From Gemmobacter megaterium (GTDB taxonomy: Bacteria; Pseudomonadota; Alphaproteobacteria; Rhodobacterales; Rhodobacteraceae): a DNA stretch of 64,000 nt. Every line of letters begins with the position of its first letter. Position 1 is the stretch's first letter. Location of the stretch: positions 1-64,000 of the forward strand of contig NZ_FTOT01000010.1 in assembly GCF_900156815.1 (NCBI RefSeq), in the 5' to 3' direction. The notes beneath the pieces are model-generated. The model worked only from the letters and a program-made list of their open reading frames with translations. It was not told where the DNA came from and did no database searches. The translations under genes were made by a program, and so were the position numbers. This document shows positions 13,802 through 48,495 of the stretch, piece after piece.

Positions 13802-14246
13802 GATACTCCCGACATGATTACGTGGATGACCTAGAGGCAAATTCTGGCATCAATTTGTCGCAACGAACAGGCATGGCCCCCGCAGCAGAAAACACTTTTT
13901 CTGGATACAGTTGCCCCGCCCCTGGCGCAAGCCGAAGCGGAGATTTGCAGCGCCGACAGGGGAAATTCCGGCAGATTCGCACGCCCGGCCCGAAGTGGCG
14001 GCCACATCTGCGCAACAGTGCCCGGCCGGGCGCGGCTTTGTTTCCGGGGCAGGCGAAAATATTGATCCATCAAGGCTATTTTGTGGCAGCCGGTTCGAAA
14101 CTCTTTGCGAGAATCCTTGCCAGAGTGTTAACGTCCCCTTGTGCTGCCATAGCCTCACCTGTCGGTTTCCTGCCTCCTCCGGGGGTGGCCGGCTTGCGGC
14201 AAATGGCATCCGGTGTGGGACAAGGTGATTTTTTCAAGAGGATGTC
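13802..14246. promoter_or_regulatory. Divergent control region between the two EPS operons
   Basis: These 445 bases separate the ATPase-Wzz-kinase operon from the sugar-transferase operon and contain no convincing gene. Base composition is visibly more AT-rich than the flanks in patches (for example around 14055-14085 and 14225-14240). A TTGTGGCAGC sequence at 14081-14090 resembles the GTGGCAGAAA repeats upstream of the GT4 gene at 24991. Both promoters must lie here. No sigma-54 site with correct spacing was found. Confidence 0.6.
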
Positions 14247-14948
14247 ATGACCACTCATTATCGTGACCTGCAAGCGTCGATTGACGAAAAATCGCTTGCA
14301 GCGCCGGTGGGGATCGGCGGGGTTTTCCGCGCCCGCCGGCTGTCATACCGGCGCACCGGGAAATGGGCGCTGGATGTCGTTCTGGTGCTGCTGAGCCTGC
14401 CCTTCGTGCTGCCGCTGGTCGGGGTTCTGGCCCTGGCCATCTTCCTGCGCGACGGCAAGGCGCCGTTCTACAGCCAGGACCGTCTGGGCAAGGGCGGCCG
14501 CATCTACCGGCTGTGGAAGCTGCGCACCATGGTGGTCGATGCCGACCGGCTGCTGGCCGCGCATCTGGCGGCCGACCCGGCCGCCCGCCAGGAATGGCAC
14601 GAAACCCAGAAGCTGAAGCACGACCCCCGGATCACCCGCGTCGGGCGGCTGCTGCGCAAAAGCTCGCTGGATGAACTGCCGCAGCTGTGGAACGTGCTCA
14701 AGGGCGACATGAGCCTGGTCGGCCCCCGCCCCATGATGCCCGACCAGCGCCCGCTCTATCCCGGCGAGGCCTATTACCGCCTGCTGCCCGGCATCACCGG
14801 CCCCTGGCAGGTGTCGGAGCGCAATGCGACCACCTTTGCCGCCCGCGCCGGATTCGACACCGATTACGAAGACCGCCTGTCGCTGGGCACCGATCTGCGG
14901 CTGCTGCTGGCCACGGTTCGGGTGGTGATCCGCGGCACGGGCTACTAG
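14247..14948 (+). CDS. Undecaprenyl-phosphate sugar phosphotransferase (ExoY-like bacterial sugar transferase)
   Basis: This 233-residue protein has one hydrophobic segment (about 41-68) followed by the conserved PHPT core: YSQDRLGKGG, LWKLRTMVVDAD, RITRVGRLLRKSSLDELPQLWNVLKGDMSLVGPRP in pieces, and the PGITGPWQV segment. Family members start exopolysaccharide synthesis by moving a sugar-1-phosphate onto undecaprenyl phosphate at the cytoplasmic membrane face. It is the short single-span form, without the PglC/WcaJ N-terminal domain. It leads the plus-strand operon; the TPR lipoprotein gene follows after 107 bp. Confidence 0.92.
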   Translation: MTTHYRDLQASIDEKSLAAPVGIGGVFRARRLSYRRTGKWALDVVLVLLSLPFVLPLVGVLALAIFLRDGKAPFYSQDRLGKGGRIYRLWKLRTMVVDADRLLAAHLAADPAARQEWHETQKLKHDPRITRVGRLLRKSSLDELPQLWNVLKGDMSLVGPRPMMPDQRPLYPGEAYYRLLPGITGPWQVSERNATTFAARAGFDTDYEDRLSLGTDLRLLLATVRVVIRGTGY

Positions 14949-14970
14949 CCGGTCCGGGTCCGCCCCCTTC

Positions 14971-14998
14971 GGGCAGGAATGCCCTTGATTTGACTTGT
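14971..14998 (+). terminator. Weak stem-loop with T-rich tail after the sugar-transferase gene
   Basis: GGGCA and TGCCC (14971-14975, 14980-14984) pair around a GGAA loop, and the following bases are T-rich. The stem is short, so it may only attenuate read-through towards the TPR lipoprotein gene. Confidence 0.3.
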
Positions 14999-15055
14999 TT
15001 TGGCCTCGCTTTGCGGGAAACTGGGCCGCGACAGTCCCTGTGTTGCGAACGGATC

Positions 15056-17521: not shown

Positions 17522-17693
17522 CCGGGGGGCTCTGTGGCGTGACCAGCACAGATCCGCAGGATATGCAGCACAGAACGGGCCCGGTCGCCGCGCATGGCTT
17601 CTGCCGCAGGCCAAAGTGCGTTAGGACAGATCAACACAAAGGCATCGGCCCGGCGCCCGCGCTGGTCCGACCTGCCGAGAGGGAGAACGAAAG

Positions 17694-18311
17694 ATGAGAA
17701 TCCTCCTTGCCGTGCTGGCCCTGCTGGGCTCTGCGCTGCTGGCCGGGGCCCCTGCCCAGGCCCAGCAATACATGGTGCGTCCCGGCGATGTGCTGCGCAT
17801 CGAGGTTCTTGAGGATCCGGGCCTGAACCGTTCGGTCATCGTGGCCCCCGACGGGCGGATCTCGATGCCGCTGGCCGGGGTGTTCAGCGCCTCGGGGCGC
17901 CCCTTGGAGGCGGTGCAAAGCGAACTGGCCCAGCGGCTGGCCGGCAATTTCGCGGTGGCGCCCAATGTCTTTGTCTCGCTGGAACGGCTGGGCGAGGCGC
18001 GGGCGACCGGCGGCGCCCCCGGCAAGGCGGCCAGCATCGGGGTCTTCGTGATGGGCGAAGGCGCCAAGAGCGGCCGGATCGACCTGGCGCCCAACACCAC
18101 CCTGTTGCAGGCCTTTGCGCAGATGGGCGGGTTCAGCAAATTCGCCGCCACCAAGCGCATCCAGCTGCGCCGGGTGGACCGCGCGACCGGGGCCGAGCAG
18201 ATCCATACCTTCAACTACGATGCCATGGTGAAGGGTGAGACCCGCAGCGGTCTGACGACGCTGATGGATGGCGATGTCATCCTGGTCCCGCAACGGCGCC
18301 TGTTCGAATAA
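17694..18311 (+). CDS. Wza-like polysaccharide export protein
   Basis: This 205-residue secreted protein has a Sec signal peptide (about 1-24, cleavage near AQAQQ), then YMVRPGDVLRIEVLEDPGLNRSVIV, the polysaccharide export (PES) motif, and a single SLBB-like region in the second half (GEGAKSGRIDLAPNTTLLQAF in part). It is the short form found in exosortase EPS loci and lacks the helical barrel of full Wza, and has no lipobox, so it may form the periplasmic ring with the beta-barrel protein encoded next. Confidence 0.9.
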   Translation: MRILLAVLALLGSALLAGAPAQAQQYMVRPGDVLRIEVLEDPGLNRSVIVAPDGRISMPLAGVFSASGRPLEAVQSELAQRLAGNFAVAPNVFVSLERLGEARATGGAPGKAASIGVFVMGEGAKSGRIDLAPNTTLLQAFAQMGGFSKFAATKRIQLRRVDRATGAEQIHTFNYDAMVKGETRSGLTTLMDGDVILVPQRRLFE

Positions 18312-18410
18312 CACATGTGGGCAGGGGGCGCGGCGGGCAGCTTCTGGCACAGGCGGTTTCGCGGGGGCCTTGCGCCGGACCGTGCCGCAGACAGCGTCGG
18401 GGGCGGCAGA

Positions 18411-19682
18411 ATGAGGCAGCGACAGGGCAACCGGCGTGGACTGGCCATCGGCGTCGTCCTGATCGGGGGGATTGCGCTGTCGGCGCAGGCCCTTGGGCAG
18501 GATCTGCGCTTTGGCTTCGACCAGCGGTTCGAGGCCAGCGACAACCAGGCGCTGCGCGCGCCCAGCCAGGGCTCCAGCCTGACATCGACCAGCCGCCTGT
18601 CGTTCGGCTATACCAGCGAAACCCCGGCCGCGACGTTCCAGTTCGGTGGCAGCGGCGTTCTGCGCGGGGTGTCGGGGGCGGTCAAGGGGCAGGGCGGTTT
18701 CCAGGATCCCTCGCTGCGGATGTCCTATACCCGGACTGCGGCCAGCGGGGAATTCGGCCTCTCGGCCCGGCTGACCAGCAATGAAATCGCCTTTCTGCGC
18801 CCGTTCGAGGATTTTCTCGATCCCGAAACCGGCGAATTCGTGCCCCCCGAGGATCTGGAGGATCTGACCGGCTCGGGGCGGCGGACCAGCTATGGGGCCG
18901 ATGCCCGGCTGCGCCTGGGCGACCAGGCGCGCGTTGGAACCACCCTGCGCGCCGGGATCCGCGGCACCCGCTATCAGGGCGTGACCAACCCCGCGCTGGT
19001 GGACAGCCGCCGGGTGTCGGCCGGGCTGGGCCTGCGCTTCAGCCTGTCCAATGTCACCGAGGCGGTGCTGGACATGGGATGGTCGCGGTTTTCCAACCAA
19101 TCCGCGCTGCAACCCGACCGTGATACGCTGTCGCTGTCGCTTGGCCTGTCGCATGACCGGCCCGATGGCCGGCTGACGGCCCGGCTCTCGGCGGAAAAGC
19201 GCGATGCAAGCCGCACCCGCTATGGGATCAGCCTGGGCCGGTCGCATGATCTGCTGCGCGGCGGGCTGTCCTATGGGTTGGGCGTCACCTGGGGCGATGC
19301 CGCCGGGCGGCGGCTGAACGGCAATATCGCCTGGACCCATGAGCTGCCCGATGGCCAGATCCGTCTGGCGGTCAACCATGGGCTGGCAACCGGCAGCAAT
19401 GACAGCACCCGGCAAGTCACCAGCGCGACCTTTGGCTGGCAGCATCGCGTGACCGAACTGTCGGCGCTGTCGCTGGACATGGGGTTGCATGACAGCCGCA
19501 ACCTGACCACCGGCACCTCGGTGCGCAATGTCAGCCTTGGGCTGGGCTACAGCCACCAGATCACCGAGGATTGGGCGCTGAACACCGGCTACCGCCACCG
19601 CCAGCGCGACAGTTCCGGCACGCAGGCCCGGTCGAACACCGTGTTCCTGAGCGTCAGGCGCGATTTCGCAACCCGGTTCTGA
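18411..19682 (+). CDS. Outer-membrane beta-barrel protein of the exosortase/EPS system
   Basis: The 423-residue protein has an N-terminal hydrophobic signal (about 12-30) and then alternating polar/hydrophobic strands with a C-terminal aromatic residue (ending RRDFATRF), the classic outer-membrane barrel signature. This matches the uncharacterised PEP-CTERM-system-associated outer-membrane family. A role as the outer-membrane pore for the exopolysaccharide is the natural inference. The ATG at 18411 was chosen as it gives a compact signal peptide preceded by a G-rich ribosome site; a start near 18315 would add 32 unlikely residues. Confidence 0.82.
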   Translation: MRQRQGNRRGLAIGVVLIGGIALSAQALGQDLRFGFDQRFEASDNQALRAPSQGSSLTSTSRLSFGYTSETPAATFQFGGSGVLRGVSGAVKGQGGFQDPSLRMSYTRTAASGEFGLSARLTSNEIAFLRPFEDFLDPETGEFVPPEDLEDLTGSGRRTSYGADARLRLGDQARVGTTLRAGIRGTRYQGVTNPALVDSRRVSAGLGLRFSLSNVTEAVLDMGWSRFSNQSALQPDRDTLSLSLGLSHDRPDGRLTARLSAEKRDASRTRYGISLGRSHDLLRGGLSYGLGVTWGDAAGRRLNGNIAWTHELPDGQIRLAVNHGLATGSNDSTRQVTSATFGWQHRVTELSALSLDMGLHDSRNLTTGTSVRNVSLGLGYSHQITEDWALNTGYRHRQRDSSGTQARSNTVFLSVRRDFATRF

Positions 19683-19717: not shown

Positions 19718-20105
19718 CTTCCTGGATTTCGAGGGCGGTGATGCGGTTGCCGACCCCGATGATCCGCACAAGGATGAACCTTGGCCGACCGCTCAGCACA
19801 TGCTGCGGGATATAGTCGAACCCCGGCATCACCCGGCATGAATAGGGGATCTGCGCGCGGGCCTCGGGGGTGGCAAAGAACGGATCGCCCCCGTCTTCGG
19901 GATCGCGCCGGTGAAAGCGGTGATAATTCGCGCGGTCCTGCTGGACGATGGCACAGAAATCGGCCAGCCGCTGGCCCGAGGAATTCACCATATCCTGCGG
20001 CCCCAGGGTGGCATGGTAATAGCCGATCTGATCCTGGGCCCGTGCCTCGGGGGCCATCAGACCCAGCAGGGGCGCTGTCAGCAGGCAGGCAAGCAACGGG
20101 CGCAT
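19707..20105 (-). CDS. Small secreted protein of unknown function
   Basis: This 132-residue protein has a signal peptide ([23 protein letters not shown]). The mature part contains [20 protein letters not shown], a [16 protein letters not shown] stretch, [18 protein letters not shown] and ends in a hydrophobic [20 protein letters not shown] strand. Two cysteines (near residues 51 and 91) could form a disulfide in the periplasm. I do not recognise the family. It is transcribed divergently from the exosortase gene (219-bp gap) and convergent with the barrel gene, so an accessory role in the exosortase/EPS system is possible. Confidence 0.75.
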
Positions 20106-20324
20106 GGGGTCTCTCCTTGGGGCAGGATCCGGGCCCCCAGACTGGCCGCGATGCGGCCCGCGATCAAGCCTGACCCGCGGCCAGGGCAAAACCACTGCTG
20201 CCGCTTTGTAAACATGCCGTTTCCGGCTTGCGTTTCTGTCGCCAAGACCGGGCATGGCGGTTATAGTGCGGGGCATGGCATCCGCCCCGCCCCGGTTCCA
20301 GACGATTTTGCAAAGGCCCGATTG
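20106..20324. promoter_or_regulatory. Divergent region upstream of the exosortase gene
   Basis: These 219 bases separate the secreted 132-residue gene (minus) from the exosortase gene (plus). No gene, strong palindrome or copy of the VPLPA-gene motif was found. Promoters for both directions are expected here. Confidence 0.4.
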
Positions 20325-21926
20325 ATGTCGATTTCCAGTACTCCGGAAACTGCCCGGACCCTGCCCTTTGGCCTGAACCCTGCGGGGCTGTTCTGGTTTG
20401 CGGTTCTGGTCGCGGCGTCGGTGCCGATCTACTGGATCGGGCTGGTCTCGCTGGGCAAGGCGTGGTCCACGCCGGAATACAGCCACGGGCCGCTGATCCC
20501 GGCGATTTCGCTGTATCTGTTCCTGCGCGAACTGCGCCATACCCCGCCGGCCCCGGCGGGAACCCCGGCCAATCGCTGGCCCGGCCTGGCGCTGGTGGCC
20601 TTTGCCCTGCTGTTCGGGATTGCCGGCAATCTGGTGCGCATTCCCGATCTGGTCGCCTATGCGCTGATCCTGTGGGTCGGCGGGGTGATGCTGGTGGGGT
20701 TCGGCTGGGCGCAGGGGCGGCGGCATTGGGCGCCGGTGCTGCATCTGGTCTTCATGCTGCCGCTGCCGCAATTCCTGTACTGGAAGATGTCGATCTTCCT
20801 GCAAGGCATCTCGTCGCAACTGGGGGTGTGGTTCGTCAGCCTGGCCGGGGTGCCGGTGTTTCTGGACGGCAATATCATCGACCTGGGCGTCTACAAGCTT
20901 CAGGTGGCCGAGGCCTGTTCGGGCCTGCGCTATCTGTTCCCGATCCTGTCGTTTTCCTATCTTGTCGCCATCCTCTATCGCGGGCCGATGTGGCACAAGG
21001 CCGTGCTTTTGCTGGCTGCCGCGCCGCTGACCGTGTTCATGAACTCGTTCCGCATCGGGGTGATCGGGGTGATGGTGAACTGGCGCGGCATCGAACATGC
21101 CGAAGGCTTTCTGCACTTCTTCGAAGGCTGGGTGATCTTTGGCTCCTGCGTGGCGATCCTGTTCCTGATGGCGATCGTGCTGCAACGCCTGACCCGCAAC
21201 CCCAAGCCGCTGGCCGAGGTGATCGACCTCGACTTCTCGGGCTTTGCCGCCCAGGGTGCGCGGTTCTTCGGCATTGCCGCCTCGCGCGGGCTGGTGGCGG
21301 CGGCGGTGCTGTCGCTGGCGGTGGCCGCGGCTTTTGTCGCGGTGCCGCCGCCGCCGCCGATCCAGCCCGAGCGCGACGATTTCCTGCTGTTCCCGCGCAA
21401 TATCGGCAGCTGGTCGGGCACGCCCACCCGGTTCGATCCGGCCACGGAACGGGTGCTGGGGGCCAGCGACTATATCACCGCCAATTACGCCTCGGCGGGC
21501 GAGCGGGGCTATGTCAACTTTTTCTCGGCCTGGTATGCCAAACAGACCGAAGGCCAGGCGATCCATTCGCCCGAGGTCTGCCTGCCGGTCGGCGGCTGGG
21601 AAGTGTTCTCGATCGACCCCTATACCGTCTCGATCCCCGGCACGGTCTATGGCGACTTCACGCTGTTGCGCGCGGTCATCCAGAAGGGGCTGGACAAGCA
21701 GATCGTCTATTACTGGTTCGAACAGCGCGGCAAGCGCATGACCAATGATTTCGCGGTCAAGGCCAGCGTGGTCTATGACAACCTGACCATGGGCCGTGGC
21801 GACGGTGCCATCGTGCGCTTTACCACCCCGCTGGAGCGCGGCGAGGACGAGGCCCAGGCCGATGCCCGGCTGCAACGCTTCATGGCGGATCTGTTGCCCA
21901 GGCTGCCGCGCTTCGTGCCGGAATGA
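20325..21926 (+). CDS. xrtD: VPLPA-CTERM-specific exosortase XrtD, fused to an EpsI domain
   Basis: The 533-residue integral membrane protein has about eight membrane spans in residues 20-290, carrying the exosortase catalytic triad: Cys198 in EACSGLRYL, Arg243 in [10 protein letters not shown] and His264 in FLHFFEGW. After a further helix near 320-340 comes a soluble EpsI (DUF3485) domain with [13 protein letters not shown] and [18 protein letters not shown]. The family cleaves or transfers secreted proteins at a C-terminal sorting signal in the inner membrane. The substrates here end in VPLPA/IPLPA-type CTERM tails, five of which are in this window. The start ATG at 20325 lies right after an in-frame-independent TGA and gives the normal N terminus. 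Confidence 0.92.
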
Positions 21927-21937
21927 GATGACATCCT

Positions 21938-21964
21938 GGCAGGTTTCCGATTGGGAACCCTGCC
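21938..21964 (+). terminator. Strong stem-loop downstream of xrtD
   Basis: GGCAGGTTTCC pairs with GGAACCCTGCC around the loop GATTG (11 bp, one mismatch), beginning 12 bases after the stop codon. No T run follows, so it may be a processing or attenuating structure rather than a classical terminator. Confidence 0.5.
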
Positions 21965-21993
21965 GGGTCAAATCATGAACAAGGCCAAAATGT

Positions 21994-22007
21994 GGCAAGA
22001 TTATGGC
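21994..22007 (+). promoter_or_regulatory. Copy 1 of the VPLPA-gene upstream motif (GGCAAGATTATGGC)
   Basis: The 14-mer fits the consensus GGYAARAWWAWGGC and is preceded by TGT. It ends exactly 93 bases before the ATG of the VPLPA-CTERM gene at 22101. Other copies lie at 23630-23643 and 26930-26943, with a weaker one at 48113-48126. Confidence 0.6.
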
Positions 22008-22025
22008 GTAGGGTGGGTTCCCCTA

Positions 22026-22042
22026 CGTCAAACGTCTTGACG
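22026..22042 (+). promoter_or_regulatory. Palindrome CGTCAA-N5-TTGACG upstream of a VPLPA-CTERM gene
   Basis: A perfect 6-base inverted repeat with a 5-base spacer, directly next to another small inverted repeat (GTAGGG at 22008-22013 with CCCTAC at 22021-22026). It lies 58 bases before the ATG at 22101. It could be an operator for a dimeric regulator; no match was found upstream of the other VPLPA genes. Confidence 0.4.
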
Positions 22043-22100
22043 CGAATCACCTGCGATCCCCACCCTTTTCGGACAGTGAATTTTTATTGGAGATCGTAGC

Positions 22101-22739
22101 ATGAACACTTACCGGAATGTTTCGGCCGCTCTTATGGCCATTGTCCTGGCGGCACCAGCCGCGCAGGCCGCAACCGTCAACCTCGACCTGGCGCCCTTTC
22201 TCACCGGCGATGTGATCGAGGATGTTTCGCCCGGATATGGCAGCGAGGGGCCGGTGACGCTGAACTGGAACCCCACCGGTGAGAGTGGGCGCAGATTGAT
22301 TCACTGGAACGGCAGCTATTCCGGCCGGGATGCCGCCTATTGCGCCAGCGGCACCAACTGCGCGCTCGATCTGACAGTGGCGGCGGGCCATAGCGTCACG
22401 CTGGACAGCTTCTGGCTGGGCGGCTGGCCCGATAGCAACCGCAATGTGACCTGGAGCGTGATGGATCTGGCCGACAGCAGCATCGTCGCCAGCGCCGTCA
22501 GCGCATTGGTCAGCGGTGCCACCGGGCTGGCCAATGCGATCGGCGCAACCTCGGACACCGGGTTCCGCATCCTGTTTGGCCCCGATGGATATAATGCCGG
22601 GATCAACGACATCACCTACAGCTATGCCCGGACGGGTGGGCCTGGCCCGGCACCGATCCCGCTGCCTGCGGCGGGCTGGATGCTGATCGCTGGTCTGGGC
22701 GGGTTGGTCGCCTTGCGGCGGCGCAAGACCGCCGCCTGA
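22101..22739 (+). CDS. VPLPA-CTERM secreted protein (1)
   Basis: The 212-residue protein has a signal peptide (about 1-23, ending AQAA) and a C-terminal sorting tail: IPLPAAGWMLIAGLGGL followed by RRRK, that is motif, hydrophobic span and basic end. The mature domain is a beta-rich, Gly/Ser/Asn-rich region with two cysteines (YCASGTNC) likely to form a disulfide. It is the presumed substrate of XrtD encoded just upstream and would be released to or anchored at the cell surface, probably within the exopolysaccharide matrix. Ribosome site GGAG stands 9 bases before the ATG. Its exact function is unknown. Confidence 0.88.
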   Translation: MNTYRNVSAALMAIVLAAPAAQAATVNLDLAPFLTGDVIEDVSPGYGSEGPVTLNWNPTGESGRRLIHWNGSYSGRDAAYCASGTNCALDLTVAAGHSVTLDSFWLGGWPDSNRNVTWSVMDLADSSIVASAVSALVSGATGLANAIGATSDTGFRILFGPDGYNAGINDITYSYARTGGPGPAPIPLPAAGWMLIAGLGGLVALRRRKTAA

Positions 22740-22752
22740 GCCATGACAGGCT

Positions 22753-22774
22753 GGCCGGGGGTCGCCCCCCGGCC
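22753..22774 (+). terminator. Rho-independent-like terminator after VPLPA protein 1
   Basis: GGCCGGGGG pairs with CCCCCGGCC around TCGC, followed by GGTTTCAT. It starts 13 bases after the stop. Confidence 0.6.
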
Positions 22775-22825
22775 GGTTTCATCCGGCATGGTCCAGCCGG
22801 ACGGCACAAGAAAAGACGGCGCAAG

Positions 22826-22851
22826 AAAAAAGGCCAGCCCGGAGGCTGGCC
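22826..22851 (-). terminator. Rho-independent terminator of VPLPA protein 2
   Basis: Read on the minus strand, GGCCAGCC-TCCG-GGCTGGCC forms a perfect 8-bp stem followed directly by six T residues. It lies 24 bases after the stop of the gene at 22876-23544. Confidence 0.85.
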
Positions 22852-22875
22852 TTTCATCGGATGTATCGGGGTCGT

Positions 22876-23544
22876 TCAGGCCGATTTGCGGCGACGACGC
22901 AGGGCGGCAAGGCCACCCAGACCGGCGATCAGCATCCAGCCCGCCGCAGGCAGCGGGATCGGTGCCGGGTTGGAGGCGGCGGTGAAGTTCGCTTCGAACA
23001 GGGCATTGCCGAGGTTGCTGAAGTAGTTCCAGCTCGAATTGCCGAACGGATCGCTGGTGTTGTTCCAGACGAAATAGTTCAGGCCGGGGGCATCGGTGCC
23101 CGAGGGCATGGTGGTGATCGCGGGGGCATTGCCCAGGCCGAACACGGTCAGGAAGGCGACATAGAGGTTGCCGGCCACCACCGAGGTTCCGCCGGTCACG
23201 AAGGTCAGCGGGCTGAACTCCGACGAGACCGGGGCGCTGGCATAATGGGTGAGCGGCGAGCCGAAGTTGTAGCCATGCGACGCGCTGCCGTTCCACGACC
23301 CGACGGCGCCGACGACATTGCCCACATCCCCGTTGAGGAACAGGGTGAAGCTGTCGAGCGTGCCGGTCACCGGGGCGGTGAAGACCTGGCCATAGGTCAT
23401 CGTATCGGGGATACCGAACGACCCGATGCTGCCACCTGTCGGGCTGTTCGAAATGGTGACAGCCGCCACCGGCGCAGCGGTCACAAGGCCGACAGCAAGG
23501 GCGGCAGCAGCAGCAAGGGCGCTCAGCCGGAGTTTCAGGGACAT
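22876..23544 (-). CDS. VPLPA-CTERM secreted protein (2)
   Basis: This 222-residue protein has a long signal peptide (to about VAAVT), a beta-rich mature region with GQVFTAPVTGTLDSFTLFLNG, a pattern seen in several PEP-CTERM-like proteins with a lectin- or jelly-roll-like fold, and a C-terminal IPLPAAGWMLIAGLGGL plus RRRRK tail. GGAG six bases before the ATG at 23544 supports that start; an ATG one codon upstream is also possible. It is a likely XrtD substrate. The upstream motif copy lies 85 bases before the start and a strong terminator follows. Confidence 0.87.
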   Translation of the reverse strand: MSLKLRLSALAAAAALAVGLVTAAPVAAVTISNSPTGGSIGSFGIPDTMTYGQVFTAPVTGTLDSFTLFLNGDVGNVVGAVGSWNGSASHGYNFGSPLTHYASAPVSSEFSPLTFVTGGTSVVAGNLYVAFLTVFGLGNAPAITTMPSGTDAPGLNYFVWNNTSDPFGNSSWNYFSNLGNALFEANFTAASNPAPIPLPAAGWMLIAGLGGLAALRRRRKSA

Positions 23545-23629
23545 CATAATCTCCACAATCGAGAAGCTGCCCCAGCGTCGTGACCCGGAGCGGAAATGGC
23601 GGCCAAGCAGATGCGACTCATCCGTTGGT

Positions 23630-23643
23630 GCCTTATTCTTACC
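23630..23643 (-). promoter_or_regulatory. Copy 2 of the VPLPA-gene upstream motif (GGTAAGAATAAGGC)
   Basis: On the minus strand this 14-mer fits GGYAARAWWAWGGC and, like copy 1, is preceded by TGT. It lies 85 bases upstream of the ATG at 23544. Confidence 0.6.
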
Positions 23644-23777
23644 ACAATTTCGGGAATGTCTATCAAAAGAATGAGACTTTCTTTCGATTCCAATCGTTTA
23701 TACGGAAACGATCCCTTGGCGCGGCGATTTTTGTGCGGCTTTCGGAAACACTGCGCGGAACAAGCCGACATTCCATG

Positions 23778-23808
23778 CAAAAGGCGGCCACCCCAGGGGA
23801 TGGCCGCC
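23778..23808 (-). terminator. Rho-independent terminator of VPLPA protein 3
   Basis: On the minus strand GGCGGCCA and TGGCCGCC pair around a 10-base loop that can itself pair (CCCC/GGGG), followed by TTTTGC. It begins 18 bases after the stop of the gene at 23827-24591. Confidence 0.8.
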
Positions 23809-23826
23809 AGTCTGCGTGACCGGATC

Positions 23827-24591
23827 TCAGGCTGCCTTGCGGCGACGGCGCAGCGCGGCCAGACCGCCCAGGCCCGCGATCAGCATCCAGCCTGCCGCCG
23901 GCAGCGGGATCGCCGACGGATCGGGCGGCAGCGAGCCTTCGTCGAGCAGCGCATAGCGCACCTGGCCCCCCATCACGAGGTATTCGCCGATCCCGTTGCC
24001 CCAGAACGAAACGCTGGTGAATTCGTCGGAATCGTCAAAGGCGGCGACGAAAATCTCGTAGACGCTGGAGGCCGGGTTGCTCTGGCTGGGGAAACGCCCC
24101 TCGGCCGTGGTCGTGGCCGAGGCCACCAGGATCGGCGCGCCGCCATCGAACGAGATGTAAAGATCGGTGCTGGGCTGGAAGCAGCAGGTGGCCCAGTCGC
24201 CGACTTCGAAGCCGATCGAGTTGATGGCCGATGCGAAGGTGAAGGTCAGGCCGCTGCCGAAATAATCCATCGGGTCGGTCCGCGGGTTGAAGCCGCCGCC
24301 TGCCGGGTTGATGCCGACCACCCGGCCCGACATCGTGCCATAGGAGGTGGTGGACAACGACCCGCCGTTGTTGCGGGTGATCACATAATCGCCCCGGTCC
24401 ACCGACGTGCCCGAAAAGTTGCTGTTCCACACATCGACATTGACGGTGCCGCCAGCGCCCGTGACCGTGGAATCGAACGAGCTGACGCCCGCAGTGATCC
24501 CGTCAAAGACCGTCACGATGGTCGCCTGGGCCGCTGTCGCTGCCCCCAGGGTGACCGCCGCGGCCACCAAGGCATTTTTCACGCTGAACAT
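23827..24591 (-). CDS. VPLPA-CTERM secreted protein (3)
   Basis: The 254-residue protein has a signal peptide (cleavage near AQAT), a beta-rich mature domain with FGSGLTFTFASAINSIGFEVGDWATCC and YISFDGG in the middle, typical of PEP-CTERM-type beta-sandwich proteins, and the tail IPLPAAGWMLIAGLGGL plus RRRRKAA. It has an AGGAAA ribosome site before the ATG at 24591. It is the third likely XrtD substrate in a row. The conserved 14-mer motif found upstream of its neighbours was not seen before this gene. Confidence 0.87.
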   Translation of the reverse strand: MFSVKNALVAAAVTLGAATAAQATIVTVFDGITAGVSSFDSTVTGAGGTVNVDVWNSNFSGTSVDRGDYVITRNNGGSLSTTSYGTMSGRVVGINPAGGGFNPRTDPMDYFGSGLTFTFASAINSIGFEVGDWATCCFQPSTDLYISFDGGAPILVASATTTAEGRFPSQSNPASSVYEIFVAAFDDSDEFTSVSFWGNGIGEYLVMGGQVRYALLDEGSLPPDPSAIPLPAAGWMLIAGLGGLAALRRRRKAA

Positions 24592-24990
24592 GATATTTCC
24601 TCTCGAAAGGTGATCGACAAATTCAAATGAGCAAAGGCGCAGACAACGCCATCCACACCCCCTCACCCACAGCGGCAAGCTATCACGGAATCGAGACGAA
24701 TCAAAAAAGGAAAACCGAAACTGCAAGGAAATACGGCGATTTTTGGGCGATTCCGGCAGGGTGGCAGAAAATTCATTTCTGTGGCAGAAACAATCACGAG
24801 GCTGTGGTCGGTCGGCAATACAGGGCGGAAACTGTGGCCGGGTGCCGGTCGTCGGCCCTGGCCTGCGGGGCCGGTGCCGCGCGGCCACCCTGCGGGGGGA
24901 TTCGGCCGATCTTCCGACATGTCTCTTGGCTTGTTAGGCGTTCTTGCTTAAGCCGTTAGCGTTGAACCATACGGCAGGATTTCGGATACG
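24592..24990. promoter_or_regulatory. Divergent region with a 20-bp-spaced direct repeat GTGGCAGAAA
   Basis: The 399 bases between VPLPA protein 3 and the GT4 gene hold no convincing gene. Two identical 10-mers GTGGCAGAAA begin at 24761 and 24781, exactly 20 bases (two helical turns) apart. Similar GTGGCA sequences occur at 14083 and 21993. Confidence 0.55.
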
Positions 24991-26196
24991 ATGCATTCAG
25001 ACAGACGCCGCGTCCTGATCGTGGTGGAAAACCTGCCCGTCCCGCTGGACCGCCGCGTCTGGCTGGAAGCGACGACCCTTGTGGCCCATGGCTATGAGGT
25101 CTCGGTGATCTGTCCGATGGCGCGCGGCTGGAATGCCCCTTACGAGATGATCGACGGCGTCCATATCCATCGTCATCCCATGCCGCTGGAGGCACATTCC
25201 GGCGCGGTGGCCTATGCCCGCGAATATGGCAATGCGATCCGGCACTGGTTCCGCCTGGCGCGCGACATCCGCCGCGGCCGTGGCTTTGACGTGATCCAGG
25301 GCTGCAACCCGCCCGATCTGGTGTTCCTGCTGGCCTGGTGGTACCGGCTGCGCGGCGTGCGCTACATCTTTGACCATCACGATGTCTGCCCCGAGCTGTT
25401 CGAGGCCAAGTTCGGCAAGCGCGGCTTGCTGTATACCGTGATGAAGCTGCTGGAGCGGCTGACCTTTGCCAGCGCCACCGTGTCGATGGCCACCAACGAG
25501 AGCTTTCGCCAGATCGCCATCGCGCGGGGCGGCATGGCGCCAGAGGATGTGTTCGTCGTCCGCTCGGCCCCGCGCACCGAAAGCTTTCTGCCCGGCCCGG
25601 CCGATCCGGCCCTGCGCCAGGGGGCGGGAACCGTCATCGGCTATGTCGGGGTGATCGGGCAGCAGGAAGGCATGGATCTGCTGGTCGAGGCCGCCGACCG
25701 GCTGGTGCGCAGGCTGGGGCATCAGGATGTGCATTTCCTGATCGTCGGCTTTGGATCCCATCTGGACGAGGTCAAGCGCGATGTCGCCGCCCGTGGGCTG
25801 GAGGCGCATTTCACCTTTACCGGCGCGCGCTATGGGGCCGATCTGCTGGCGGCGCTGAATTCCTGCGATATCGGCGTGGTGCCCGATCCCAAGAACGAGA
25901 TGAACGACATCTCGACCATGAACAAGATCATGGAATACATGGCGCTGGAAAAGCCGCTGGTGCAGTTCGATCTGGCCGAAGGTCGCGCCTCGGCAGGCGA
26001 GGCCGCGCTTTATGCCCGGCCCAATGATCCGGTGGATTTCGCGGAAAAGATCGCCCAGTTGATCGCCGACCCGGATCTGCGTGCCCGGATGGGCCGGATG
26101 GGGCGGCAAAGGGTGCTGGATCGTCTGGGCTGGGATCATTCGGTGCCGCATCTGCTGGCGGCCTATGACCGGGCCTTTGCCAGGATGGGGCGCTAA
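24991..26196 (+). CDS. GT4-family glycosyltransferase
   Basis: This 401-residue protein shows the two Rossmann domains of GT-B enzymes: VLIVVENLPVPLDRRVWLEA at the N terminus with FDHHDVCPELFEAKF near residue 130, then TVIGYVGVIGQQEGMDLLVEA near residue 215, and the donor-site region NDISTMNKIMEYMALEKPLV near residue 305. It should transfer a sugar from a nucleotide donor onto the exopolysaccharide precursor. Such GT4 genes are common in exosortase EPS loci. It stands alone between two minus-strand VPLPA genes. Confidence 0.88.
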   Translation: MHSDRRRVLIVVENLPVPLDRRVWLEATTLVAHGYEVSVICPMARGWNAPYEMIDGVHIHRHPMPLEAHSGAVAYAREYGNAIRHWFRLARDIRRGRGFDVIQGCNPPDLVFLLAWWYRLRGVRYIFDHHDVCPELFEAKFGKRGLLYTVMKLLERLTFASATVSMATNESFRQIAIARGGMAPEDVFVVRSAPRTESFLPGPADPALRQGAGTVIGYVGVIGQQEGMDLLVEAADRLVRRLGHQDVHFLIVGFGSHLDEVKRDVAARGLEAHFTFTGARYGADLLAALNSCDIGVVPDPKNEMNDISTMNKIMEYMALEKPLVQFDLAEGRASAGEAALYARPNDPVDFAEKIAQLIADPDLRARMGRMGRQRVLDRLGWDHSVPHLLAAYDRAFARMGR

Positions 26197-26225
26197 GACG
26201 GGAGCAGCCCCGCCGAGACGACAAA

Positions 26226-26248
26226 GGGCGCGGCCTGTGCGGCCGCGC
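26226..26248 (-). terminator. Terminator of VPLPA protein 4
   Basis: On the minus strand GCGCGGCC and GGCCGCGC pair around a 5-base loop, followed by CCTTTGT. It lies in the 79-bp gap between the convergent GT4 and VPLPA genes and could serve both. Confidence 0.6.
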
Positions 26249-26275
26249 GCCCGGTCTTGCCTTTGGTACGGCGGA

Positions 26276-26836
26276 TCAGACCGTCTTGCGACGGCGCAGC
26301 ACGACCAGCCCGCCCAGTGCGCTGAGCAGCAGCACGGCACCCGCCGGCAGCGGGATCGGCGCCGGGCCGCCATCGAGCGGATCCCCCGAATACCAGACCG
26401 AGGCATGGGACAGCCCGTTCATCGAGTTCCCCGGCCCCAGCGTGCCCCACAGCCCGTTCAGCCCTTCGGCGGTGTCGAGCTTGAACAGCGCATAGGAACT
26501 GGCCTGTTTCAGGGCTACCATCATATGTTCATAGGCCGTACCGGCCAGCGCCCAGGTCTGGCCCACCAGCGAGATCGAGGCATTGCCGCTGCCGCCGCCA
26601 TCGGTGGCGCCGCCCAGCGTCCAGCCGGTTTCGCCAAAGATCGACGACAGCGCGGTGATGTCGTTCTTGTCATTGCCACCAAAGCAGCCATGGGCCGTCA
26701 CCTTGTCCGGCATGCCTTGGGTCAGCGTATAGGTGACTTGCTGCATACCCGATCCGATCGAACAGGTCGCAGCACTGGCCGTGCCTGCCGAAAGGGCAAG
26801 AGCGGTCACAAGGGCCAGGGACTTCAGAATTGTCAT
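26276..26836 (-). CDS. VPLPA-CTERM secreted protein (4)
   Basis: This 186-residue protein has a signal peptide (to about ASA), a mature region with three cysteine-containing stretches near the N terminus (TCSIGSG, HGCFGG), and the C-terminal tail IPLPAGAVLLLSALGGL plus RRRK. The tail has GAVLLL instead of GWMLIA, like the protein at 47422-48054, so it belongs to a second tail subtype. AGGAGG eight bases before the ATG at 26836 fixes the start. The conserved upstream motif lies 93 bases before it. Confidence 0.87.
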   Translation of the reverse strand: MTILKSLALVTALALSAGTASAATCSIGSGMQQVTYTLTQGMPDKVTAHGCFGGNDKNDITALSSIFGETGWTLGGATDGGGSGNASISLVGQTWALAGTAYEHMMVALKQASSYALFKLDTAEGLNGLWGTLGPGNSMNGLSHASVWYSGDPLDGGPAPIPLPAGAVLLLSALGGLVVLRRRKTV

Positions 26837-26929
26837 GTTCAATGCCTCCTACGCAGAGAATGGACAGCAGATTTCCCTTTCCCGGCATGGCGGTCTGCCC
26901 GTCTGGTATGGGCAGGGCGTCAACCGATC

Positions 26930-26943
26930 GCCTTTATTTTGCC
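26930..26943 (-). promoter_or_regulatory. Copy 3 of the VPLPA-gene upstream motif (GGCAAAATAAAGGC)
   Basis: This minus-strand 14-mer matches GGYAARAWWAWGGC and lies exactly 93 bases upstream of the ATG at 26836, the same distance as copy 1. Confidence 0.6.
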
Positions 26944-27089
26944 CCTTTTCTGCCTTGTTTGCAACAAATCCTCCGGGATCGGGCGAATTTGCAACCTGTG
27001 CGGTCGCGCCGGGTTGGGGACCTGGCGGAATGCGCGCTATTCTCGGGTGTTGTTTCCGAAATCGAAACGAGTTTGCCCGGCCGGTCGGC

Positions 27090-27746
27090 TCAGGTGATTC
27101 GCCCCTTCTGGTGCCGCCCGGCCCAAAGCGCACAGAGAACCCCGGCCAGATAGCCGCCCAGATGGGTCTCCCAGGCCAGCAGTCCGCGCAACAGCACAAA
27201 GCTGACCAGGTTGAACAGCGCCAGCCCCAGGGTGATGGCCGCAAAGGGCCAGAGCGCGCCCCAGACCCCCCGGCCCTCGGCCCGGCGGTCCTGGACCAGC
27301 CCCCAGGCCCAGATCCCGGCCAGTCCGAACACCAGCCCCGAGGCGCCGACCATCGGCTGCGGGCTGCGCGACAGCAGGCCAAAGGCCAGCCCGCCCCCCA
27401 GCACGATCAGCAGGCAGGCCAGCAGGAACCCCGCACGGTCCAGCCGCTCGGCCGCCAGCCGCCCCAGCGGCAGGATGCCCAGCAGGTTGCCGATCAGATG
27501 ACCCGGCCCGCTGTGCAGGACGGCATGGGTCAGGAACATCGTCACCGGCTGGACGGCATAGTTCGGGGTCCAGCCATGCAGCAACCCGGCCCAGAAGGCC
27601 CCGTACTGATAGCTCAGCGGCCGCCACAGCACCGTGCCCCAAAGACCCAGATCCGCGCCCAGAACCACCAGTTCGGGCAGCGCCACCGCCACCGCCAGCC
27701 CGGTCACATAGCGCGGGGTCATATCTGCCGGAAACCGCGATGCCAC
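27090..27746 (-). CDS. Rhomboid-family intramembrane serine protease
   Basis: The 218-residue membrane protein has six predicted spans. It carries the rhomboid TM2 pattern HAVLHSGPGHLIGN, the catalytic Ser in VGASGLVFG, and the catalytic His in ETHLGGYLAG near the end. Family members cut transmembrane segments of other proteins inside the bilayer. A GTG at 27746 with AAGGG upstream is preferred; an ATG at 27722 is possible. Its nearness to XrtD and the VPLPA proteins suggests, without proof, that it trims C-terminal membrane tails. It is not clearly a rhombosortase, since no GlyGly-CTERM proteins were seen. Confidence 0.85.
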   Translation of the reverse strand: MASRFPADMTPRYVTGLAVAVALPELVVLGADLGLWGTVLWRPLSYQYGAFWAGLLHGWTPNYAVQPVTMFLTHAVLHSGPGHLIGNLLGILPLGRLAAERLDRAGFLLACLLIVLGGGLAFGLLSRSPQPMVGASGLVFGLAGIWAWGLVQDRRAEGRGVWGALWPFAAITLGLALFNLVSFVLLRGLLAWETHLGGYLAGVLCALWAGRHQKGRIT

Positions 27747-27810
27747 CTGCCTGCCCTTTCTGGCCGCTCCGCAACAGCACGGCCCGGCGCCGGGCAGAAT
27801 ACACAAGCCT

Positions 27811-27848
27811 GCCGCCCGCGCCATGCCTGCAAGGGGGGGGCGGGCGGC
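27811..27848. terminator. Large GC stem-loop between the coiled-coil and rhomboid genes
   Basis: GCCGCCCGC (27811-27819) and GCGGGCGGC (27840-27848) pair over a 20-base loop in the 204-bp gap. No T run follows; it may slow or end transcription from the coiled-coil gene. The rest of the gap holds nothing that I recognise. Confidence 0.4.
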
Positions 27849-47421: not shown

Positions 47422-48054
47422 TCAGGCCGCGGGCTGGCTTGCCTTGCGGCGGCGCAGGACGGCCAGGCCGCCCAGGGCGCCCAGCAGCAGCACGCCGCCG
47501 GCTGGCAGCGGAACCGCCGACACCTGCACCGAGATCGAGGACAGGTCGAAGTTGTTCGACCAGGGCGCGAATTCACCGAACCAGACGCCGACGGCATCCG
47601 CGGCCAGCGCCGTGGTCAGCGCCGTGCCGGTCAGCTGATAGGTCACCGAACCGCTGCCGACCAGCGTTCCCAGCGAGATGCGCGTGGCCGACGAGGTATC
47701 GAGATTGCCGCCGCCGGTCAGCGCGCCTGCGGTAAAGGTCTGCCACTGCTCGGACAGGAAGAAACCGTTGCCTGCATTGGCGTAGTTCACCGTCACGCTG
47801 ATGGCGTTGATCTGGTTGCCGATGCTGGCCAGCGAGAACTGCTGGTAAAACGGCGTGCCGGATCCGTCGTTCAGGCGGGCATAGTTGCTGCCATAGGTGA
47901 CGCGCGGGGCCGCCCCTTGGGTTGCGGTACCGGCTGCGCCGAAATCCGTGCCGTAGTTCTGGGTGAATGTCACCGTGGCGGCATCGGCCGCAGCTCCAAG
48001 GCCGATGACAGCGGAAAGGGCAATGGCGGGGAGGGAAAGATATTGCTGGATCAT
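47422..48054 (-). CDS. VPLPA-CTERM secreted protein (5)
   Basis: This 210-residue protein has a signal peptide (about 1-26, ADAA), a beta-rich mature domain with VTFTQNYGTDFG and ISVTVNYANAGNGFFLSEQW, and the C-terminal VPLPAGGVLLLGALGGL plus RRRK tail. It lies 25 kb from xrtD but should be one of its substrates. The ATG at 48054 gives a standard signal peptide; AGGAG is 14 bases upstream, and an ATG at 48087 would lengthen the N terminus by 11 residues. A motif-like site lies 58 bases upstream. Confidence 0.85.
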   Translation of the reverse strand: MIQQYLSLPAIALSAVIGLGAAADAATVTFTQNYGTDFGAAGTATQGAAPRVTYGSNYARLNDGSGTPFYQQFSLASIGNQINAISVTVNYANAGNGFFLSEQWQTFTAGALTGGGNLDTSSATRISLGTLVGSGSVTYQLTGTALTTALAADAVGVWFGEFAPWSNNFDLSSISVQVSAVPLPAGGVLLLGALGGLAVLRRRKASQPAA

Positions 48055-48495
48055 GGGAAGGTTCAAGGCTCCTGTCGTGAACATCATGGCCGGACGCCAC
48101 TTGGCGCGACGCGCCTTTTTTAGGCCACATTTTCGCCATGGTCCAAGAAAAACCCCCGAAAAGATCAAATTTCCGTGCCTGCGACCGGCATTGCGATGCA
48201 GATCCTCCGCGATCCGGGACCGGGGCAAAGATTGTCGATACCTCCTCAACAATCATGCGAGCCCCGGAAATCCGGGGCGCCTGGGCATGTGCCAGCCTCG
48301 TGCCGGGTGATTCCCGTTCTGGTGGCCTGCCGCAACCTTTGAGGGCAAGGGCCGGCTGGTATCGGGTCGATCCCCGAGCGGAGGGCCGCGCACAGGGGCG
48401 CCGGCGCATCGCCCCGGCCCCCGCTTTCACATTGCCCGGACACAGGCGATGCGTGTAGGTCAGGGAAACCGACCCCTGGCCAAAGCGAGACCTCC
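48055..48495. promoter_or_regulatory. Divergent 441-bp region before the nonulosonate cluster
   Basis: No gene was recognised. A site at 48113-48126 (minus strand GGCCTAAAAAAGGC) matches the VPLPA-gene motif in 12 of 14 positions and is preceded by TGT, but stands only 58 bases from the start codon. Confidence 0.4.
48113..48126 (-). promoter_or_regulatory. Weak copy 4 of the VPLPA-gene upstream motif
   Basis: Minus-strand GGCCTAAAAAAGGC matches GGYAARAWWAWGGC at 12 of 14 positions and has the preceding TGT. It lies 58 bases before the ATG at 48054. Confidence 0.4.

What the first reader, a model, noticed from the sequence alone, without database searches (positions are those of the whole stretch)
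21994..26943. Shared 14-bp motif GGYAARAWWAWGGC upstream of VPLPA-CTERM genes
GGCAAGATTATGGC (21994-22007), GGTAAGAATAAGGC (minus, 23630-23643) and GGCAAAATAAAGGC (minus, 26930-26943) sit 93, 85 and 93 bases before the ATGs of three separate VPLPA-CTERM genes. A weaker copy (48113-48126, 12 of 14) precedes a fourth. Three of the four are preceded by TGT. Equal distance in two unlinked orientations argues for a promoter or activator site controlling the XrtD substrates as a regulon. I know of no described regulator with this site.
Basis: partly seen in the sequence, partly recalled or inferred. Interest (0 to 1): 0.8.

Follow-up and report, generated by a model that had tools for sequence, protein, structure and literature searches.

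The report
Probable ChvI boxes controlling exosortase substrates
A repeated DNA signal in front of genes for surface-sorted proteins looks like the docking site of a widespread bacterial envelope-stress switch (ChvG-ChvI), which would tie a poorly understood protein-sorting system to slime production under one control.

Summary
The motif is real and more than chance. It is not a free-standing 14-mer but part of an 11-bp tandem direct repeat, GGC-N8-GGC with an A-rich spacer (three units before the genes at 22101, 26836, 48087). A matrix trained without this genome scores four of its eight VPLPA-CTERM promoters above 16 bits and a fifth at 13.9. Of 146 VPLPA-CTERM upstream regions, 66 carry GGC-N8-GGC (shuffles 24.8 +/- 4.2), and GGC pairs peak at exactly 11 bp. 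The same box (12 bits or more) precedes the initiating-glycosyltransferase gene in 14 of 26 XrtD loci.

One is described: the Sinorhizobium meliloti ChvI consensus is reported as N-GCC-N8-GCC, the same site on the other strand. This genome has a chvI-chvG pair, and the ChvI recognition helix is nearly invariant in 59 loci. The known PEP-CTERM link, sigma-54, fails: no RpoN here, and only 7 of 32 carrier genomes have one above cut-off.

Best reading: ChvI boxes joining XrtD substrates and polysaccharide genes in an envelope-stress regulon. Binding by ChvI and the direction of control are inferred. Nine S. meliloti fragments bound by ChvI in vitro showed no such site above background.

The parts
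21983..22007 (+). three-unit 11-bp direct repeat GGC-N8-GGC-N8-GGC before the VPLPA-CTERM gene at 22101
   Evidence: one of two exact matches to the 3-unit pattern in 4.17 Mb; matrix trained without this genome 18.6 bits
23630..23643 (-). two-unit repeat GGT-N8-GGC before the VPLPA-CTERM gene starting at 23544
   Evidence: 13.9 bits with the matrix trained without this genome
26930..26954 (-). three-unit repeat before the VPLPA-CTERM gene starting at 26836
   Evidence: one mismatch to the 3-unit pattern; 17.8 bits
48113..48137 (-). three-unit repeat about 25 bp before the ATG at 48087 of a further VPLPA-CTERM gene
   Evidence: second exact 3-unit match in the genome; 16.3 bits
24726..24758 (-). 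marginal box-like stretch before the fifth VPLPA-CTERM gene (24591)
   Evidence: 12.5 bits only
13836..13868 (+). weak box between the divergent AAA-ATPase gene and the WbaP-like gene (14247)
   Evidence: 11.6 bits; corresponding promoters score 12 bits or more in 14 of 26 other XrtD loci
22101..22739 (+). VPLPA-CTERM protein gene
   Evidence: TIGR03370 42.2 bits, cut-off 25.35
22876..23544 (-). VPLPA-CTERM protein gene
   Evidence: TIGR03370 42.4 bits; start chosen by script
23827..24591 (-). VPLPA-CTERM protein gene
   Evidence: TIGR03370 43.3 bits; start
26276..26836 (-). VPLPA-CTERM protein gene
   Evidence: TIGR03370 36.7 bits; start
47422..48087 (-). VPLPA-CTERM protein gene
   Evidence: TIGR03370 34.5 bits; start
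19911..21926 (+). VPLPA-CTERM-specific exosortase XrtD with EpsI domain
   Evidence: TIGR04152 671.6 bits, cut-off 400; TIGR02914 124.6 bits
14247..14948 (+). WbaP-like initiating glycosyltransferase of the XrtD polysaccharide locus
   Evidence: TIGR03022 257.4 bits, below the cut-off of 403; a WbaP-like family occurs in 26 other XrtD loci

Best explanation
The motif is a binding site for an OmpR-family response regulator, most likely ChvI of the ChvG-ChvI envelope-stress two-component system. ChvI would bind head to tail on 11-bp direct repeats (GGC plus A-rich spacer), about one helical turn per unit, upstream of VPLPA-CTERM genes and of the WbaP-like gene of the XrtD-linked polysaccharide locus. 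The sorted surface proteins and the polysaccharide would thus be switched together when the envelope is stressed. Shown: the repeat, its exact 11-bp spacing, its enrichment before VPLPA-CTERM and WbaP genes, the match to the reported ChvI consensus, a ChvI-type regulator here and the conservation of its recognition helix. Inferred: that ChvI and not another regulator binds, that phosphorylation matters, and that the effect is activation (in S. meliloti ChvI is reported to activate some operons and repress others, PMC3687685, passages).
For: (a) De novo motif search in 146 upstream regions (8 of them from this genome) gives tGGCaAAAt.tGgC with period 11; trained on 138 regions without this genome it scores 18.6, 17.8, 16.3 and 13.9 bits at the window sites and 18.1 bits, reversed strand, before a VPLPA gene on contig C31. 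(b) GGC-N8-GGC in 66 of 146 VPLPA regions; shuffles 24.8 +/- 4.2, 0 of 200 reach 66; controls 123 of 419; G+C-matched bins 21/64 v 12/108, 14/33 v 17/86, 19/28 v 30/98. (c) GGC pairs at distance 11: 91; other distances mean 38.8, largest 51. (d) Held-out genomes: 17.1% of 146 VPLPA regions at 16 bits or more, 2.1% of 420 control draws, 0.1% of 1460 shuffles. (e) WbaP promoters, not used in training: 10 of 26 at 14 bits or more; XrtD 0/67, outer-membrane protein 0/31, rhomboid 0/28, Wzc-like 0/27, kinase-like 0/25, glycosyltransferase 0/21, export protein 3/29, TPR protein 3/30, AAA gene 3/24. (f) S. meliloti ChvI consensus N-GCC-N8-GCC as reported in PMC9731502 (passage). (g) chvI-like gene at C24:357886-358584 with a chvG-like gene downstream and a pckA-like gene divergent, the pckA-chvI neighbourhood named for S. 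meliloti; a 14.1-bit box lies before chvI itself. (h) Recognition helix DRTIDSH(I/V)KRLRKK in 30 of 30 family loci; in 29 of 29 class loci the same or with conservative changes only (17 identical to one of these two forms). (i) ChvGI is said to regulate exopolysaccharide genes in alphaproteobacteria (abstract start of PMC9731502 in the listing).
Against: No binding data. The Caulobacter ChvI motif is given as TTGC-N3-GCAA, so the consensus is not agreed across species. Nine pSymB fragments bound by S. meliloti ChvI in vitro (PMC3687685) all score under 8 bits, and bare GGC-N8-GGC is in 2 of 9, random pSymB pieces 2.6 on average (GGY-N8-GGY 5 of 9 v 4.7); the authors call that screen not saturating and most of its fragments lay in coding DNA. 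chvI promoters in the family carry the box only irregularly (24 of 30 loci parsed; GGC pairs at 11 bp 10, at other distances 2-8). Three of eight VPLPA genes here have no good box (12.5, 6.4 and 6.4 bits), and 80 of 146 regions lack GGC-N8-GGC. The looser GGY-N8-GGY hardly separates VPLPA regions from controls (92 of 146 v 226 of 419, p 0.035). A third unit is not enriched across all regions. In the window the WbaP promoter has only an 11.6-bit hit. The name ChvI rests on recall, gene order and a weak ChvG model match; no ChvI-named model was among the 25 hits shown, whose best was TIGR03787 below cut-off.
Confidence: 0.6

Rival explanations
1. Another OmpR/PhoB-family response regulator, or an unrelated regulator that reads tandem repeats, binds the site.
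For: This genome has 12 Trans_reg_C matches, 10 of them over the cut-off. OmpR-family regulators often bind direct repeats, e.g. CenR TGA-N8-TGA in Rhodobacter sphaeroides (PMC9275681, passages). None of the ten gene families found in 20 or more XrtD loci is a regulator (families named from the window members), so linkage does not point to ChvI. The in-vitro ChvI fragments did not support ChvI.
Against: Of the two consensus sequences seen for OmpR-family proteins with an N8 spacer, only that of ChvI has GCC/GGC half-sites. Recognition helices of five other regulators of this genome that could be parsed differ.
Confidence: 0.27
2. Sigma-54 -24/-12 promoter (GG-N10-GC), as in the RpoN-dependent PEP-CTERM gene pepA.
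For: The 14-mer has GG and GC at the right spacing; RpoN-dependent pepA is published (PMC9850573, passages: TGGCAC and CTGCTT).
Against: No Sigma54_DBD match at E 0.001 and no rpoN_sigma match above 11.1 bits, cut-off 277, in a genome rated 100% complete; 7 of 32 VPLPA-carrying genomes (chosen by me, not at random) have RpoN over the cut-off. GAFTGA is absent from three activator-type proteins; three others could not be parsed. The third GGC unit and reversed-strand copies do not fit.
Confidence: 0.02
3. Intrinsically curved DNA: phased A-tracts, or overlapping sigma-70 promoter elements, without a specific protein.
For: AAA and WWW pairs also peak at 10-11 bp, and TAA (z 5.7) and AAT (z 4.1) pairs peak at 11. 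In this genome the best sigma-70-like hexamers overlap or adjoin the repeats.
Against: GGC peaks sharply at 11 (z 7.5; 44 pairs at 10 bp and 43 at 22 against a mean of 37.9), CGC hardly (z 2.4). Excess A-tract phasing is confined to promoters with the box (peak/trough 1.84; 1.39 without box; 1.36 controls).
Confidence: 0.08
4. Chance resemblance of A+T-rich promoter DNA.
For: The 14-mer was chosen after seeing the sites.
Against: Tests on held-out or untrained sequences and shuffles.
Confidence: 0.02

Closest known systems
Sinorhizobium meliloti ChvI binding sequence (Ratib et al. 2018, seen only as quoted in PMC9731502)
   Same: GCC-N8-GCC direct repeats, i.e. GGC-N8-GGC read on the other strand; a regulator with a ChvI-type recognition helix is present here
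   Different: targets here are XrtD substrates and an XrtD-linked polysaccharide locus; spacer is A-rich (not compared with the S. meliloti spacer); three units in three window sites
CenR site of Rhodobacter sphaeroides (PMC9275681, passages)
   Same: OmpR-family tandem direct repeat with N8 spacer, upstream of envelope genes
   Different: TGA half-sites instead of GGC
RpoN control, probably with PrsK-PrsR, of PEP-CTERM genes (PMC9850573, passages)
   Same: shared control of exosortase substrates
   Different: sigma-54 promoter; no RpoN here; different promoter architecture

Membership tests
ChvI binding site | GCC/GGC direct repeats separated by N8 | tested here: met
   for the window sites (23630-23643 has GGT in one half); for other genomes; consensus from PMC9731502
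ChvI binding site | ChvI-ChvG pair encoded in the genome, with conserved recognition helix | tested here: met
   naming partly from recall, ChvG model match weak and from a partial sequence
ChvI binding site | matrix from VPLPA promoters also recognises DNA bound by ChvI | tested here: not met
   0 of 9 pSymB fragments at 8 bits or more, no excess of bare GGC-N8-GGC; fragments come from an in-vitro screen that mostly hit coding DNA
ChvI binding site | box conserved before chvI itself (autoregulation) | tested here: inconclusive
   14.1 bits in this genome, irregular in 24 parsed family loci
ChvI binding site | physical binding of ChvI | not testable with these tools
   needs gel shift or ChIP
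OmpR-family tandem site | direct repeat with a period of 10-11 bp | tested here: met
   sharp peak at 11 bp
sigma-54 promoter | RpoN present in the genome | tested here: not met
CenR site | TGA-N8-TGA half-sites | tested here: not met
   half-sites are GGC; consensus

The most novel reading that the evidence does not exclude
In Rhodobacteraceae the ChvG-ChvI envelope-stress system controls a joint regulon of XrtD-sorted (VPLPA-CTERM) surface proteins and the XrtD-linked polysaccharide locus, in place of the RpoN control known for a PEP-CTERM gene of another proteobacterium. In the held library (openly licensed PubMed Central papers only) no paper found joins ChvI to exosortases: ChvI + exosortase 0 papers; ChvI + PEP-CTERM 1 paper, unrelated by its title, listing only; VPLPA-CTERM 1 paper, listing only; exosortase + response regulator + direct repeat 1 paper, listing only.
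Probability: 0.53. Interest if true: 0.65.

Novelty: new member of a known kind. Interest (0 to 1): 0.55.

Why it matters
What exosortase systems do in alphaproteobacteria is, to my knowledge, hardly known. A named, widespread regulator makes it directly testable when and why VPLPA-CTERM proteins are made, and predicts that they work together with the polysaccharide made by the same locus. It also gives a sequence-based way to look for further members of the regulon.

Tried and rejected
Sigma-54: my first hypothesis, because the 14-mer has GG-N10-GC and an RpoN-dependent PEP-CTERM gene is published; dropped. A regulator encoded in the XrtD neighbourhood: none among the ten families found in 20 or more loci; the 35 further families found in 4 to 11 loci were only looked at by eye and include proteins that look like plasmid replication and partition proteins, one of them ParB-like, so a rarer linked regulator is not excluded. 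Autoregulation of chvI as proof: irregular. S. meliloti in-vitro fragments as positive controls: no support; the four pSymA fragments and the chromosomal ones were not tested. Third-unit enrichment across all regions: not found, although in 48 strong sites a G recurs 11 and 22 bp after the second GGC. A fixed promoter position downstream of the box: not seen. SMb21440, one of three gel-shift targets, could not be located because the pSymB record held here has no gene table.

Rows dropped or limited: VPLPA set = 29 loci brought, the 8 genes of this genome, 100 regions fetched from the matches listed (that list was itself cut off, best first), and 14 genes found in the named XrtD loci: 151. Three were dropped for lack of a clear C-terminal motif and 1 exact duplicate was dropped, leaving 147, of which 146 were used. 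Start codons were chosen by script and some are probably wrong; none were removed for that. The control set (419) comes from XrtD neighbourhoods, not from the same genomes, and holds at least one VPLPA gene and several WbaP genes. The WbaP family was singled out after one search showed such hits; one search then reports all ten families. L077 and L123 show the same WbaP site and come from one contig, so the 26 WbaP promoters are at most 25 independent ones. The seed of the matrix was informed, which included the 8 regions of this genome; its training did not include them. One search started from a bare GGC-N8-GGC frame; in it each named locus counted as its own genome. The 3-unit pattern was designed after seeing the window sites. 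One search parsed no helices because of a mistake in my pattern; one search parsed 56 of 59 with a pattern that asked for part of the helix; one search repeated this by tblastn for all 59, without that fault.
Full report
What was checked. The genome has eight such genes at E 0.01: five in the window and three on contig C31. Of the 35 matches with up to 1 mismatch to the 14-mer in the genome (backwards control 11) four lie before VPLPA-CTERM genes, one of them on C31 on the opposite strand (C31:14760).

What the motif is. Overlapping hits 11 bp apart suggested a longer object. A de novo search, started from random words, in 146 upstream regions of VPLPA-CTERM genes (8 from this genome) returned a tandem direct repeat tGGCaAAAt.tGgC with a period of 11 bp. 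The window sites read GGC-N8-GGC-N8-GGC (21983-22007; 26930-26954; 48113-48137) or GGT-N8-GGC (23630-23643). A matrix trained on 138 regions of other genomes scores the window sites 18.6, 17.8, 16.3 and 13.9 bits and one C31 gene 18.1 bits on the reverse strand; the other three genes score 12.5 (24591), 6.4 and 6.4. In the 64-kb window the four best hits are the sites at 21983-22007 (twice, in two registers), 26930 and 48113; the fifth (15.0 bits, 21917-21949) overlaps the end of XrtD upstream of the first site, and 23630 comes sixth. A 3-unit pattern, designed after seeing the sites, has two exact matches in 4.17 Mb, both before VPLPA-CTERM genes, and 15 with one mismatch at most, four of them before VPLPA-CTERM genes; the backwards control gave 10. 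So elsewhere in the genome it is at background.

Statistics on other genomes. GGC-N8-GGC on either strand is found in 66 of 146 regions; shuffles give 24.8 +/- 4.2 (0 of 200 reach it); 123 of 419 control regions from XrtD neighbourhoods have it (Fisher p 0.0004). The looser GGY-N8-GGY separates poorly (92 of 146 v 226 of 419, p 0.035). Controls are richer in G+C; in three G+C bins the counts are 21/64 v 12/108, 14/33 v 17/86 and 19/28 v 30/98. GGC pairs at 11 bp number 91; other distances average 38.8, largest 51. Among the triplets GGC/GCC has the sharpest peak at 11 (z 7.5), followed by TAA (5.7) and AAT (4.1). In four-fold cross-validation by genome, 17.1% of held-out VPLPA regions reach 16 bits, 2.1% of control draws, 0.1% of shuffles; AUC 0.70 and 0.72. 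So the site is strongly enriched but far from universal. It occurs on both strands: 49 of 147 regions reach 13 bits forward, 22 reversed (this matrix was trained on most of them).

A second class of targets. The strongest control hits turned out to be largely polysaccharide genes (19 rows of 14 bits or more). Tested by gene family, with the matrix trained on VPLPA promoters only, WbaP-like initiating-glycosyltransferase promoters in XrtD loci score 12 bits or more in 14 of 26 and 14 or more in 10 of 26 (one duplicate pair included). At 14 bits the others give: XrtD 0/67, outer-membrane protein 0/31, rhomboid 0/28, Wzc-like 0/27, kinase-like 0/25, glycosyltransferase 0/21, export protein 3/29, TPR protein 3/30, AAA gene (divergent from WbaP) 3/24. 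In the window the matching intergenic region has only a weak hit, 11.6 bits at 13836-13868.

Which regulator. Sigma-54 was my first guess and is excluded here: no Sigma54_DBD, no rpoN_sigma (best 11.1 bits, cut-off 277), and 7 of 32 VPLPA-carrying genomes have RpoN over the cut-off. A direct repeat of one helical turn suits OmpR-family regulators (PMC9275681, passages). The ChvI consensus of S. meliloti, N-GCC-N8-GCC, is the same site on the other strand (PMC9731502, passage of the discussion; the original paper is not held). This genome has a chvI-like gene at C24:357886-358584, followed by a chvG-like gene (59 bits with a ChvG model, cut-off 740, from a partial sequence) and with a pckA-like gene divergent; pckA and chvI are neighbours in S. 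meliloti too. The names ChvI and pckA rest partly on recall: no ChvI-named model was among the 25 hits shown. ChvI-type proteins are found in 54 of 61 family genomes (E 1e-70) and 35 of 58 class genomes (E 1e-60). The recognition helix is DRTIDSH(I/V)KRLRKK in 30 of 30 family loci, and in 29 of 29 class loci the same or with conservative changes only (one search had parsed 56 of the 59). That makes a conserved binding specificity likely, but does not prove it.

Against this. Caulobacter ChvI is assigned another motif. None of nine S. meliloti fragments bound in vitro reached 8 bits, and bare GGC-N8-GGC occurs in 2 of 9 against 2.6 expected from random pieces. chvI's own promoters are irregular. 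Across all regions more than two units are not enriched. DNA curvature may contribute: A-tracts are phased, but the excess is confined to promoters that have the box.

Direction of control. In this genome the best sigma-70-like hexamers overlap or adjoin the repeats, which would suit repression; the median distance of 92.5 bp to the ATG (48 sites) would suit activation from upstream. Neither is decisive. Activation is my guess from the role of ChvI in exopolysaccharide production.

Verdict. A real site, wrongly thought to have no known counterpart: most likely ChvI boxes, giving exosortase substrates and their polysaccharide locus a shared envelope-stress control. New as a set of targets, known as a kind of site.

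Noticed in passing
window 27090-27824 (-): Rhomboid-type protein resembling rhombosortase (TIGR03902 35.8 bits, cut-off 84); its family is present in 28 XrtD loci, this window counted, so it may belong to the XrtD system.
   Followed up: partly
window 14687-19682 (+): The XrtD locus carries relatives of XrtA/PEP-CTERM system parts, all below cut-off: PrsT-like TPR protein, export protein, TIGR03016-like outer-membrane protein; families found in 30-34 loci.
   Followed up: partly
L271 1501-1524 (C19:84993, -): 3-unit box with one mismatch in the gap of about 90 bp before a predicted 418-aa gene (L271 1587-2843) of unknown function; possible further regulon member.
   Followed up: no
L027 (C24:358609-358622, -): One-mismatch copy of the 14-mer just before the chvI-like gene.
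   Followed up: partly
G000 versus G001-G004: Of five genomes of the genus only this one has VPLPA-CTERM matches at E 1e-4: the XrtD system was gained here or lost in the others.
   Followed up: no
L280 (C24:357886-358584): ChvI also resembles the response regulator of the proteobacterial dedicated sortase system (TIGR03787 240.5 bits, cut-off 335.7).
   Followed up: no
chvI upstream regions, L280-L309: A different conserved element (GATTCGCAGTT...TTGATTC, read by eye) recurs about 60-90 bp before chvI in many family genomes.
   Followed up: no
XrtD loci, families 10, 13, 14: Proteins that look by eye like plasmid replication and partition proteins lie within 10 kb of XrtD in 8-11 loci, so the system may often be plasmid-borne.
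   Followed up: no
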